NCBI RefSeq assembly: GCF_002216685.1
Contig: NZ_CP022352.1
Coordinates: 992,001-1,056,000 of the forward strand
Reading direction: 5' to 3'
Source: Vibrio tarriae
Lineage (GTDB): Bacteria > Pseudomonadota > Gammaproteobacteria > Enterobacterales > Vibrionaceae
Length of the DNA stretch: 64,000 bases
Of the stretch, positions 30,958-42,166 are shown piece by piece. The notes under the pieces are model-generated. The model was not told where the DNA came from. It saw only the letters and a list, made by a program, of their open reading frames with translations, and ran no database searches. Made by a program: the position numbers and the translations under genes. Each line of letters starts with the position of its first letter. Position 1 is the first letter of the stretch.

Positions 30958-31187
30958 AAAAATCATGGTTTATCTTTGTTAAGGTTAATTCATTCAAATC
31001 TCATTGAGAGTGGGACTGGAGAGTAATCGACACTAAAATAGAAAGCTGCCAATCACCTTGAATATATTGACACTAGTTTATCTACTATTGATTTCAGCAG
31101 TTAAATTGTGGACAAAGCGAGAGGTATTATAAGTGCAGTTGAAGTTGGGTTTCTGCTTGAACTAGATGTTTAGGCAGAGACCAATAA

Positions 31188-31868
31188 CTATTCAAACCTA
31201 ATATTTTCTTGATGAACCCATACTGCTGCTTCAACTCGAGATCGTAATTGTAATTTTTTTAAGATACTTTTTACATGAACTTTCACTGTACTTTCCGAAA
31301 TGAAAAGTTTATTAGCAATCATTTTGTTTGATAAACCAATAGCAATGTTTTTTAGTATATCTTGTTCTCGAGCACTAAGAATATCAATGGTTAGATTTGT
31401 TAGCTTTTCCTTTTTCTTTTCCTTTAGGTTATCTACTAAAATAGCAGTTAATTCAGGACTAATGACGGTTTTACCTAAGCAAGCATTTTCAATAGAAAAT
31501 AGTAATTCTTCAGGTTCCATATCTTTTAAAAGATACCCATCAGCTCCTAATTTTATTGCCTTTGACACATCTTCATTATAATTTGAAACAGTGAAAATTA
31601 TAATTTTACTGGAGATGTTTTTTTTGCGTAATAATTGCAGTGTTTTCAATCCATCTAATTCTGGCATATTAATATCTAAAAGGATTAAATCTGGCTCATA
31701 GTCAATGGCGTATTCAATCCCTTGATGCCCGTTACTTGCCTCTGCTACAACGGTGAGGTGCTTTCTGGTATTGAGTAACTGTTTAATACCATTTCTTAGC
31801 ATGGGGTGATCATCTATTAAGAGTATTGTAGATGCATCAGCATTAGTAAATGTTTGTTCTTTAATCAT
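31188..31868 (-). CDS. narL: NarL-type nitrate/nitrite response regulator
   Basis: 226 residues, very close to enterobacterial NarL: ATILLIDDHPMLR-like start, GADGYLLKDMEPEELL, and the end SRVEAAVWVHQENIRF. The phosphoacceptor is D65 (LILLD). The LuxR-type helix-turn-helix is at about 160-215 (LSAREQDILKNIAIGLSNKM, ESTVKVHVKSILKKL). It is directly after narX on the minus strand, one base apart. The AT content is much higher than in the neighbouring core genes. It is distinct from NarP at 5487 and is the expected regulator of narK-narGHJI. Confidence 0.92.
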   Translation of the reverse strand: MIKEQTFTNADASTILLIDDHPMLRNGIKQLLNTRKHLTVVAEASNGHQGIEYAIDYEPDLILLDINMPELDGLKTLQLLRKKNISSKIIIFTVSNYNEDVSKAIKLGADGYLLKDMEPEELLFSIENACLGKTVISPELTAILVDNLKEKKKEKLTNLTIDILSAREQDILKNIAIGLSNKMIANKLFISESTVKVHVKSILKKLQLRSRVEAAVWVHQENIRFE

Positions 31869-31869
31869 A

Positions 31870-33621
31870 TCAACCTCGTGAATAAATAGGAAAAGTCAGA
31901 TAAAATTTAGTGCCTTTGTCAGGATAAGAAATAATGTCCCATTTGCCTGATAAAGATTGTGCTCTATCACCAATAATTTTTAATCCGTAATGAGAACTTT
32001 CTTGTGGTATGGAAAATCCGCATCCGTCATCGATCATAACTAATGATATGTCATTGCCTTTTACGGACAAGTTCAATATTACATTGGAGGCTTGTGCGTG
32101 TTTATAAATATTGTTTAATAATTCTCGAATGATTTGTATCAAATGTATGGATTGATGAATAGATACCGTATTGGCTGGAATTTTATAACTAAAATTTATT
32201 TGTATCCCTAATTTCTTATTATATTCTTTTATTGTATTTTCTAGTGCAGGTAAAAACCCTAGACCATCTAACTTCAACCTGAAAGTAGTCAGCAACTCTC
32301 TAAGTTGGCTGTACGCAACATTTACTTCTTCCCGCATTTCCTCAATGATCAATGATTGTTCATTTTTTAATTTAGACTGGTCCATCTGTAAAATGCTCAA
32401 TTTTATTTTAAGGCAAGAAAGAGACTGAGCGATGGAATCATGCAGCTCTCTAGCAATTGTATTTCTCTCTTTTAAAATTAATATTTGTTGGTCTTGTTGA
32501 ACTTTATAATAAACGGAAAGAGATTGTGTTAACAACTCTGAAAATGCAACTATTATTTGTTCATTTTCTATATTTAAAGGTGATTCATAATTTGATGATA
32601 TGACAATTGCTCCATAATCATTAGTAGAATCCTTTAGTTTTATACTAGTTTCAAATACATTTTCAATAGGTCGTTTGTTTTCATCGAAGCAAAGATTGCA
32701 GTTGGAATTTTTACAAGAAAGCGGTCTGTTTAATGAGCCGAAATCAAAGATTTGATTACTTTCACTTTCTTGGTAATCTTTAATTGAAATTGTCACGCTA
32801 CATATGCTTGTTAATTCAATTAATTCTTTAATTAATGGTGCTAAAATATCGCAACTATATTGCTCATTATTAAACATTTTGCATGCTCGATAAAGAAAAT
32901 ATAAGTATTTGTTCTTTTGATTAAGGTCTTCAGTTTTTTGGTATACTAATTGTTCTAAGTTTAGATATATTTCTTTTAGGCTGTCTGACATTAGATTAAT
33001 TGAATCACCCAGCTCATTCATTTCATCTTTATTTTTCTGTACGATAAATTTCTTGCTAAAGTCACCAGATTTAATTGATCTTGATATGTCAAGTAGTGAC
33101 ATCCAAGGTTTGAATAATCTTGAATATAAGTTTCTTATTGCATAAAGTCCAAATATTATCACGAGAATACTGAATAGTTTTTGAATATTTTCTAGTGATT
33201 TAATGTTTTTCTCAGTGTTGTGTTCGACTTTATCAATTAGATTGTTTGTTTTTTTTACAAATTCCTCTGAATTAAATTTCATTGATTTTATATCTTTATC
33301 TTCTATATTTGTGTGGAAAAAATTTATTAGGTCACTATATTCAATATTTAATTTGCTCTCTATCATGTATTCTTTTATTTTATACTCAGACAGTGTTGAT
33401 TTGATGGTTTGTATGTCTTCTGAATGGGTTTGATTTTTTGCTGATGAAATGGATTTATATATCAACATCCTTATTGACCCAATTTGATTAACAATATGGG
33501 TTCGACCTTGGATGTTATCGACTATGACTAATGAAGTTACCATGCCAGATGTTGATATGGTACAGAGCATGAGTATAAAGAAGGATATTTTTTTTGTTAT
33601 AGATACATTTAACAAGTGCAT
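31870..33621 (-). CDS. narX: NarX-type nitrate/nitrite sensor histidine kinase
   Basis: 583 residues from the ATG at 33621 (MHLLNVSITKKISFF); an in-frame start 72 bases upstream has no support. TM1 is at about 12-35. The P-box region (HIVNQIGSIRMLIYKS) keeps GSIRM but has lost the usual QSYR. A periplasmic helical domain, TM2 (about 148-165), a HAMP region and a central domain with a Cys cluster (CKNSNCNLC) follow. HisKA_3 is RELHDSIAQS with H394; the ATPase part has NNIYKHAQASN and DDGCGF. The region is strongly AT-rich. It is divergent from narK, as in enterobacteria. Confidence 0.88.
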   Translation of the reverse strand: MHLLNVSITKKISFFILMLCTISTSGMVTSLVIVDNIQGRTHIVNQIGSIRMLIYKSISSAKNQTHSEDIQTIKSTLSEYKIKEYMIESKLNIEYSDLINFFHTNIEDKDIKSMKFNSEEFVKKTNNLIDKVEHNTEKNIKSLENIQKLFSILVIIFGLYAIRNLYSRLFKPWMSLLDISRSIKSGDFSKKFIVQKNKDEMNELGDSINLMSDSLKEIYLNLEQLVYQKTEDLNQKNKYLYFLYRACKMFNNEQYSCDILAPLIKELIELTSICSVTISIKDYQESESNQIFDFGSLNRPLSCKNSNCNLCFDENKRPIENVFETSIKLKDSTNDYGAIVISSNYESPLNIENEQIIVAFSELLTQSLSVYYKVQQDQQILILKERNTIARELHDSIAQSLSCLKIKLSILQMDQSKLKNEQSLIIEEMREEVNVAYSQLRELLTTFRLKLDGLGFLPALENTIKEYNKKLGIQINFSYKIPANTVSIHQSIHLIQIIRELLNNIYKHAQASNVILNLSVKGNDISLVMIDDGCGFSIPQESSHYGLKIIGDRAQSLSGKWDIISYPDKGTKFYLTFPIYSRG

Positions 33622-41448: not shown

Positions 41449-42122
41449 GTTTCTTAAATGGTTTCTTTTTTAATATCTATCCCTATATCGCTGGTTCCGT
41501 ATTCTTGATAGGTAGTTGGGTAAGATATGACTATGGCCAATACACTTGGCGTGCAGGGTCTAGTCAAATTTTAGATAATACTAATATGCGGTTAGCTTCT
41601 GGGCTCTTTCATGTCGGTATTATAGGGATATTTCTCGGGCATTTTTTTGGAATGTTAACGCCTCATTGGGTCTATGAATCATTCCTATCATTAACCACAA
41701 AACAGTTGCTTGCGATGATCGCTGGTGGTGTGTTCGGAATGATGACCATAGTAGGAGGCGCAATGTTACTTAGACGACGCTTGACGAATGCTCGGGTTCG
41801 TGCAACGTCATCTTTTGCTGATATATTGATCCTTACCCTGCTTGTGATTCAAGCATGCTTAGGTGTATTGACTATTCCTTTTTCTGCACAGCACTTGGAT
41901 GGCAGTGCAATGATGAAATTAGTTGGTTGGGCGCAAGATGTCGTGACATTTCAATCTGGAGCGGCAAATAACTTAGATGGTGTCAGTTTTATATTTCGCA
42001 TTCATATGATATTGGGAATGACGATATTCCTTATTTTCCCATTCTGCAGATTAGTTCATATTTGGAGTATTCCCTTCGAATACATATCAAGGCGTTATCA
42101 AATTGTAAGAAGCAGAAGGTAA
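41445..42122 (+). CDS. narI: NarI, respiratory nitrate reductase gamma subunit (cytochrome b)
   Basis: 225 residues with five membrane helices, the same length as E. coli NarI. The heme b ligands occur at the same positions as in E. coli: H56 and H66 (GLFHVGIIGIFLGHFFG), H187 and H205 (FRIHMILGMTIF, RLVHIW). It oxidises quinol at the periplasmic side and anchors NarGH. It overlaps narJ by 4 bases and ends the operon before a hairpin at 42133. Confidence 0.96.
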   Translation: MSFLNGFFFNIYPYIAGSVFLIGSWVRYDYGQYTWRAGSSQILDNTNMRLASGLFHVGIIGIFLGHFFGMLTPHWVYESFLSLTTKQLLAMIAGGVFGMMTIVGGAMLLRRRLTNARVRATSSFADILILTLLVIQACLGVLTIPFSAQHLDGSAMMKLVGWAQDVVTFQSGAANNLDGVSFIFRIHMILGMTIFLIFPFCRLVHIWSIPFEYISRRYQIVRSRR

Positions 42123-42132
42123 CCCAGATCGG

Positions 42133-42166
42133 AAAAGTGAGTGAATTGATATGACACTCACTTTTC
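42133..42166 (+). terminator. Terminator of the narK-narGHJI unit
   Basis: AAAAGTGAGTG and CACTCACTTTT pair over 11 bases with an 11-base loop; TCTAAAAAA follows. It marks the right end of the recognisable nar block. Confidence 0.7.

What the first reader, a model, noticed from the sequence alone, without database searches (positions are those of the whole stretch)
30958..42166. Complete narXL-narK-narGHJI locus as an AT-rich block in a Nap-type vibrio chromosome
The gene order (narL-narX divergent from narK, then narGHJI) copies the enterobacterial locus. NarG, NarH and NarI keep cofactor ligands at E. coli positions (NarI H56, H66, H187, H205). narX, narL and the spacer DNA are strikingly AT-rich compared with the core genes around them. 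The reference V. cholerae genome, as I know it, has only periplasmic Nap. The block sits cleanly between an intact LysR gene and unrelated genes. It could confer true respiratory, proton-motive nitrate reduction. No integrase or flanking repeats were seen.
Basis: partly seen in the sequence, partly recalled or inferred. Interest (0 to 1): 0.7.

Follow-up and report, generated by a model that had tools for sequence, protein, structure and literature searches.

The report
Acquired nitrate-respiration gene block in Vibrio
A bacterium closely related to Vibrio cholerae carries a complete, apparently borrowed set of genes for nitrate breathing, near its own older nitrate system and at a point where a large piece of its second chromosome has been flipped around; the enzymes are ordinary, but the way this set moves among vibrios is worth knowing.

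Summary
Window 31188-42122 encodes intact narL-narX | narK-narGHJI with the checked E. coli cofactor ligands, plus an orphan gene (42220-42690) that also follows narI in three relatives. Close narG genes occur in 12 of 227 Vibrio genomes, not in the four nearest relatives found. The core 31150-42649 matches two other vibrios, identifiable as V. fluvialis and V. navarrensis, at 83-85%. Those two share a 20.2-kb island at 90.6% that also carries NO-detoxification genes (norVW, a YtfE-like protein); the window locus has only the nar core, and its genome shows no NorV and no NirB over cut-off. NarG falls with Vibrio/Aeromonas, not inside Enterobacterales. No empty site was found: the block fills one junction of a 148-kb inversion whose other end abuts the chromosomal integron. 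Nap and NarQP lie 25-28 kb away, so two nitrate systems coexist. Databases hold V. cholerae-labelled NarX of a V. fluvialis-type allele, which suggests at least two acquisitions in the clade. Verdict: ordinary NarGHI respiration, most likely acquired; the context is new, the enzyme is not.

The parts
31188..31868 (-). narL, nitrate response regulator
   Evidence: NCBIfam NarL 305.8 bits, cut-off 250; 92% aa to G046 and G097 copies
31870..33693 (-). narX, nitrate sensor kinase; probable start at 33621
   Evidence: NCBIfam NarX 489.8 bits, cut-off 578 not reached; Cys 327/332/335 and RELHDS H-box; named relatives start at the inner Met
33843..33856 (+). perfect FNR box TTGATCTAAATCAA in the narX/narK divergent promoter region
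   Evidence: Pattern match (consensus recalled); identical in G097, one difference in G046 and in Aeromonas
33888..35318 (+). narK, nitrate/nitrite transporter; probable start at 33918
   Evidence: TIGR00886 332.7 bits, cut-off 311.7; PDB 4jr9 E 8.7e-187; in-frame TGA upstream of the inner ATG in G046
35421..39185 (+). narG, catalytic Mo-bisMGD subunit
   Evidence: TIGR01580 2328 bits, cut-off 1084; PDB 1q16_A; ligands present
39188..40726 (+). narH, Fe-S subunit
   Evidence: TIGR01660 992 bits, cut-off 524; PDB 1q16_B
40726..41448 (+). narJ, assembly chaperone
   Evidence: TIGR00684 126 bits, cut-off 59
41445..42122 (+). narI, diheme cytochrome b subunit
   Evidence: TIGR00351 348 bits, cut-off 106; four heme His
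42220..42690 (+). orf156, orphan membrane protein, last gene of the block
   Evidence: No Pfam/NCBIfam match; follows narI in G046, G097 (51%, 49%) and Aeromonas enteropelogenes (29%); model pLDDT 74.5, two long helices then a beta domain
30984..31149 (.). left junction, 166 bp between lysR-side homology and the nar block
   Evidence: G061 homology ends at 30983; nar-block homology starts at 31150; a 10-bp integron-repeat word, 24 of 500 shuffles as good
42650..42831 (.). right junction, 182 bp between the nar block and amidohydrolase-side homology, with a terminator-like hairpin
   Evidence: Block ends at 42649, G061 homology resumes at 42832; hairpin 42797-42826
30097..30957 (+). lysR-type regulator, left flank, intact
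   Evidence: Pfam LysR domains; left flank 84% DNA in G061
42844..44703 (-). amidohydrolase, right flank, start of the inverted segment
   Evidence: Pfam Amidohydro_3; collinear with G061 from 42832 on
249..3588 (-). resident periplasmic nitrate reductase genes napA (249-2738) and napF (3082-3588)
   Evidence: TIGR01706 1677 bits, cut-off 931; TIGR00402 145 bits, cut-off 102
3746..6110 (+). resident narQ (3746-5497) and narP-like regulator (5487-6110)
   Evidence: NCBIfam NarQ 772 bits, cut-off 553; NarP best match 278 bits, below cut-off 343

Best explanation
The block is a horizontally acquired, canonical respiratory nitrate module. NarX senses nitrate and phosphorylates NarL; without oxygen FNR, probably helped by NarL, switches on narK and the downstream narGHJI genes; NarK takes up nitrate and exports nitrite; NarJ serves cofactor loading; NarGHI takes electrons from quinol through the NarI hemes and NarH clusters to NarG, releasing protons outside and using them inside, so nitrate reduction builds proton-motive force. 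This adds to the resident NapA/NarQP pathway. The block is the core of a roughly 20-kb nitrate/NO-detoxification island found in other vibrios, and in this lineage it lies at the joint of a 148-kb inversion of the small chromosome. Shown: genes, open frames, ligands, patchy distribution, shared island, inversion geometry. Inferred: transfer and its direction, regulation, proton-motive function.
For: Families and ligands. Close narG in 11 of 196 genus genomes (own included) and 1 of the other 31; G100 has a divergent one; only weak, other-enzyme matches in G061, G088, G057, G116. 83-85% DNA over 31150-42649 to G046/G097, which share 20.2 kb at 90.6% with unrelated flanks. NarG tree (SH-aLRT only): window+G046+G097 100, +Aeromonas 100; rpoB tree: window with G061/G088/G116, G097 elsewhere. 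4-fold-site identity of narG to G046 and G097 (0.55, 0.63) exceeds that of napA (0.44, 0.43) and the CoA-disulfide reductase (0.42, 0.40). Inverted segment G000 1034832-1183202 (unrolled) collinear with G061 50602-208213 in the stretches compared. Resident nap/narQP. FNR box conserved.
Against: rpoB 4-fold identity for the same pairs (0.66, 0.62) is as high as that of narG, so the excess similarity is not seen against a slowly evolving gene. AT-rich composition may itself raise narG identity somewhat. Synonymous distances of narG (dS 0.6-1.0) are far too large for recent transfer from either relative, so the donor is unknown. The NarX cut-off is not reached. No palindromic 7-2-7 NarL/NarP site was found at narK, and such matches in the window (3) are no more than chance (3.4 expected); single heptamers at narK: 1 found, 0.37 expected. 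No expression or growth data exist.
Confidence: 0.85

Rival explanations
1. Old Vibrio heritage: the ancestor of these vibrios had nar, and most lineages, including the close sisters of the window, lost it; the window's copy is vertical.
For: The window and 11 other carriers form one NarG clade with Aeromonas; nar lies on the same replicon as the CoA-disulfide reductase gene, roughly 80-150 kb away, in the window's genome, G046 and G097, and DNA about 9 kb beside the G097 island matches DNA inside the window's inverted segment, hinting at a shared neighbourhood; rpoB is as similar as narG at 4-fold sites.
Against: Different sharp flanks in the window, G046 and G097; narG pairs are less diverged at 4-fold sites than napA and the CoA-disulfide reductase; for narG the window is nearer to G097 than to G046, against rpoB; V. 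cholerae-labelled NarX follows V. fluvialis, not the window.
Confidence: 0.12
2. Direct acquisition from an enterobacterium, as the gene order suggests.
For: Same order narL-narX | narK-narGHJI as in E. coli (E. coli order recalled); after Aeromonas (84%) the best named NarG matches outside Vibrionales are Enterobacterales, up to 79%.
Against: NarG nests in a Vibrio+Aeromonas clade (SH-aLRT 99) with Providencia outside it; NarX is 33-39% identical to the listed enterobacterial NarX but 74-80% to the V. navarrensis, V. fluvialis-type and V. cholerae-labelled copies; NarX of the other Vibrio carriers is as distant as the enterobacterial ones.
Confidence: 0.03
3. A decaying or silent passenger: present but not used, because the regulators diverge and NO-detoxification partners are gone.
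For: No NorV match and no NirB over cut-off in the genome; NarX and NarJ diverge fast (74-85% aa to G046/G097); AT-rich DNA is a usual target of silencing (recalled).
Against: All eight genes are open, ligands are kept, and dN/dS of narG, narH and narI against G046/G097 is about 0.02-0.04 (dN 0.021-0.028, dS 0.63-0.97).
Confidence: 0.1

Closest known systems
E. coli narXL-narK-narGHJI and nitrate reductase A (PDB 1q16)
   Same: Gene order (E. coli order recalled), subunits, cofactor ligands, FNR-type control region before narK
   Different: narK-narG spacer only about 100 bp with no FNR box, so narGHJI may follow from the narK promoter; an extra gene orf156; NarX weakly conserved
V. fluvialis- and V. 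navarrensis-type 20.2-kb nitrate/NO island (G046, G097)
   Same: narL..orf156 at 83-85% DNA over 11.5 kb
   Different: At the window locus the YtfE-like, HPP-CBS, MCP, DUF1971, norW, norV and norR-like genes and the small gene beyond orf156 are missing; NorV is not found in the whole genome, the others were not searched genome-wide
Aeromonas enteropelogenes nar cluster (L055)
   Same: NarG 84%, NarH 86%, orf156-like gene after narI, norV-, norW- and DUF1971-like genes upstream (by eye)
   Different: A NapH-like gene (by eye) next to narL; NarX only 38-39%
V. cholerae Nap and NarQ-NarP nitrate system
   Same: The same kind of system is resident in the window
   Different: Reference V. cholerae lacks NarL, and narGHJI and narK are absent from the genomes studied in PMC1805755 (passages and section 22); PMC7212424 section 5 describes only Nap

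Membership tests
Respiratory membrane-bound nitrate reductase NarGHI | NarG with FS0 ligands and Asp Mo ligand; equivalog score | tested here: met
   H50, C54, C58, C93, D223 (numbering with Met1); 2328 bits vs cut-off 1084
Respiratory membrane-bound nitrate reductase NarGHI | NarH Fe-S subunit and NarI diheme subunit with four His | tested here: met
Respiratory membrane-bound nitrate reductase NarGHI | Quinol-dependent nitrate reduction that builds proton-motive force | not testable with these tools
   Needs enzyme or growth assays
NarX-NarL nitrate two-component system | NarL equivalog; NarX equivalog with Cys cluster | tested here: inconclusive
   NarL passes; NarX best match but 489.8 < 578 bits; Cys 327/332/335 present, no such cluster in resident NarQ
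Genomic island (acquired block) | Patchy distribution, other composition, different insertion places in carriers | tested here: met
Integrative element with its own integrase | Integrase, att repeats or tRNA target at the ends | tested here: not met
   No tRNA in the window, no long repeats at either end, no integrase seen by eye among the ORFs of the block or of the G046/G097 island
Chromosomal integron gene cassette | Flanked by attC/VCR repeats | tested here: not met
   No VCR at the right junction; the left junction holds only a 10-bp word, 24 of 500 shuffles as good; the other inversion end does carry a VCR part, 0 of 500 (the name VCR is recalled)

The most novel reading that the evidence does not exclude
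Insertion of the nar core and the 148-kb inversion were one event, anchored at the far end of the chromosomal integron, and an about 20-kb nitrate-plus-NO-detoxification island is passing repeatedly between vibrios, entering the Cholerae clade at least twice as different alleles and shedding its NO-detoxification arm in the window's lineage.
Probability: 0.3. Interest if true: 0.55.

Novelty: new member of a known kind. Interest (0 to 1): 0.42.

Why it matters
V. cholerae is described as reducing nitrate by Nap under NarQP (PMC7212424 section 5), and PMC1805755 (section 22) argues that genomes without cytoplasmic nitrate reduction need only the single pair NarP-NarQ. A sister genome with Nap, NarQP, Nar and NarXL on one replicon is a natural case for that idea: does adding cytoplasmic Nar demand the second sensor pair, and can a vibrio run Nar without NirB or NorV to deal with nitrite and NO? 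It also suggests that the rare nar genes of vibrios (Nar alpha chain in 19 of 1349 genomes in PMC6194322, passage seen; 12 of 227 here) move as an island, although that paper says, citing others, that transfer is not a strong factor for narG.

Tried and rejected
Empty-site search: in 227 genus genomes the left and right flanks were searched apart; among the best-matching relatives none showed them side by side, so no empty site could be shown; comparison with G061 explained this by an inversion. Match lists in those calls were cut short.

Cassette idea (orf156 or the block as an integron cassette): no VCR at the right edge, marginal 10-bp word at the left; orf156 travels with nar in other hosts. 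Rejected.

Plasmid vehicle: 59 plasmid records matched the block, none over 80% of it; the one Vibrio record, V. fluvialis pIDH5335-3, holds the norV-to-narX part but also luxP/luxQ and is linear, so it may be chromosomal. Left open.

NarL sites: not enriched. FNR pattern with up to one mismatch: 11 in the window, 4.3 expected, 1 of 100 shuffles as many. Fold search for orf156: best E 0.013, none under 0.001, mostly PH-like folds of histone chaperones; not used.

Analyses that went wrong: one search gave false rpoB values (wrong strand; redone) and false narK values for G046 (in-frame stop near the start; not recomputed). The G100 NarG was mis-framed (287 aa) and dropped from the tree, as was L045 (same record as G131): 91 of 93 rows used. 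rpoB: 21 of 22 genomes matched; the tree used 20, G057 being split and G037 unmatched. The NarX tree used 45 rows: 12 from loci and 33 of 120 listed hits out of 1540; two rows held one stop each, read as gaps. One search kept the best 80 of at least 594 loci. NrfA was not tested (no searches left), and PMC9677704 (passage) says V. metoecus has nitrite-to-ammonia enzymes, so a nitrite dead end is not proved.
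Full report
What is there. The window holds, all open, narL and narX on the minus strand and narK, narG, narH, narJ, narI on the plus strand (31188-42122). NarG, NarH, NarI and NarL pass their NCBIfam cut-offs, NarJ and NarK pass one family model each but not a stricter second one, and NarX matches best but below cut-off. An eighth gene, orf156 (42220-42690), matches no Pfam or NCBIfam family but follows narI in G046, G097 and Aeromonas enteropelogenes; its model has two long helices and a small beta domain at moderate confidence, with no convincing fold match.

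Promoters. A perfect FNR box lies at 33843-33856; it is identical in G097 and differs by one base in G046 and in Aeromonas. One other perfect box occurs in the window, at 50378. The narK-narG spacer is about 100 bp, 18% GC, without such a box. An in-frame stop in G046 and the box position suggest that narK starts at 33918; relatives' NarX proteins suggest that narX starts at 33621. NarL sites are not evident at narK.

The resident system. napA and napF are at 249-3588 and narQ and a NarP-like regulator at 3746-6110 of the same window. A NarL/NarP-type palindrome with one mismatch lies at 3651, between napF and narQ, but such matches in the window are no more than chance (3 found, 3.4 expected). 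So the genome has two nitrate reductases and two sensor pairs, 25-28 kb apart.

Distribution. Close narG genes (75-100% over nearly full length) were found in 11 of 196 genus genomes, own included, and in 1 of the remaining 31: 12 of 227. G100 has a further, divergent one. Of these 12, 7 have NapA over cut-off (17 genomes examined) and 8 have NorV (91 of 227 overall). Of 10 genomes examined for NirB, five carriers (G046, G097, G111, G131, G078) pass; the window's genome and G061, G088, G057, G116 do not. PMC6194322 (passages seen) reports the Nar alpha chain in 19 of 1349 Vibrio genomes and Nap in 1327.

Relatives. The four genomes nearest by the left flank are G061, G088, G057 and G116. By rpoB the window groups with G061, G088 and G116 at 96% DNA, G046 comes next at 89%, and G097 sits with G050 elsewhere (G057 not in that tree). 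None of the four has a narG. G046 is V. fluvialis or very near: 98.8% over 7.9 kb to a V. fluvialis record. The window's species is not fixed; its orf156 is 96% identical to one named V. tarriae.

The island. The window matches G046 and G097 at 83% and 85% over 31150-42649 and not beyond on either side. G046 and G097 match each other over 20.2 kb at 90.6% with unrelated flanks. The extra part holds a YtfE-like protein (best family YtfE, below cut-off), an HPP-CBS protein, a chemotaxis receptor, a DUF1971 protein, NorW, NorV and a GAF/sigma-54 activator that resembles NorR in place and domains. Aeromonas has norV-, norW- and DUF1971-like genes upstream of narL too (by eye). The window's genome has no NorV match at E 1e-50; the other arm genes were not searched genome-wide. 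The NarG tree gives window+G046+G097 (100), then Aeromonas (100), inside a Vibrio+Aeromonas clade (99; SH-aLRT only). 4-fold-site identity for narG, window to G046 and G097, is 0.55 and 0.63, against 0.44 and 0.43 for napA and 0.42 and 0.40 for the CoA-disulfide reductase; but rpoB gives 0.66 and 0.62. So transfer is likely, but not recent from either. NarX labelled V. cholerae (P0019, P0022) is 92% and 89% identical to G046 but 75% to the window, and the NarX tree keeps them apart: this suggests a separate acquisition, resting on database labels.

The site. In G061 the left flank (lysR) ends at C1:208395 beside a CoA-disulfide reductase gene, and the right flank (amidohydrolase) starts at C1:50602, about 1.3 kb from the integron array. 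In the window's genome the stretches compared from the amidohydrolase to the CoA-disulfide reductase (148 kb, taking the chromosome as circular; not every part was fetched) are collinear with G061 but inverted relative to the left flank. The nar block fills the 11.85 kb at one junction; at the other, the last codons of the CoA-disulfide reductase differ from those of G061 and G088 and part of an integron repeat follows within 130 bp (0 of 500 shuffles as good). The reductase lies beside the left flank in 4 of 4 relatives, within 0.2 kb in G061, G088 and G057 and 2.3 kb in G116. Integron repeats lie within 2 kb of the right flank in G061 and G088 and about 9 kb off in G116, while the G057 contig ends too soon. 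The inversion is therefore most simply derived in the window's lineage. Whether nar came with it cannot be told. Against independent insertion: DNA about 9 kb beside the G097 island matches DNA inside the window's inverted segment, so the neighbourhood may be shared.

Mechanism and limits. Standard knowledge of NarGHI gives nitrate respiration with a proton-motive redox loop, NarK transport and FNR/NarXL control. In E. coli, NirBD and Hcp are key contributors to holding the NO level during nitrate respiration (PMC6805990, abstract and passages); the window's genome has no NirB over cut-off and no NorV, so it may accumulate nitrite and NO more than other carriers. NrfA, Hcp and Hmp were not tested. 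V. cholerae already accumulates nitrite from nitrate (PMC7212424 section 5).

Novelty. The enzyme and operon are a known kind. Ten searches of the paper library listed no paper that I recognised as treating this locus or island in the Cholerae clade; several listings were cut (for example 10 of 1603), only the passages and sections named were read, and most subscription papers are not held. So absence from print is not claimed.

Noticed in passing
L235 (NZ_AP028132.1 60451-79443): V. fluvialis record pIDH5335-3, filed as a linear plasmid, holds norV to narX of the island, but narK is not matched and narG is a 993-bp piece between two IS5 transposase genes of the same accession; luxP/luxQ nearby suggest a chromosomal fragment.
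   Followed up: partly
G000:C2:1258492-1261126: A formate-dehydrogenase-like frame is split into 592 and 402 aa where several relatives show one frame of 961 aa.
   Followed up: no
window 50378-50391: A second perfect FNR box with the same 14 letters as the one at narK.
   Followed up: no
window 27937-30957: The efflux-type and lysR genes are matched in G061, G037, G093 and G050 but not in the G088, G057 and G116 stretches; in G088 and G057 the CoA-disulfide reductase lies directly beside the next genes, in G116 2.3 kb away.
   Followed up: partly
L197 6489-14725: Genes that look by eye like a type I-F CRISPR-Cas set lie just beyond the island's norR-like end in G046.
   Followed up: no
L129 (G100:C4:15000-34000): A divergent nar cluster (about 40-65% in pieces) in another vibrio, of a different lineage from the other 12.
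   Followed up: no
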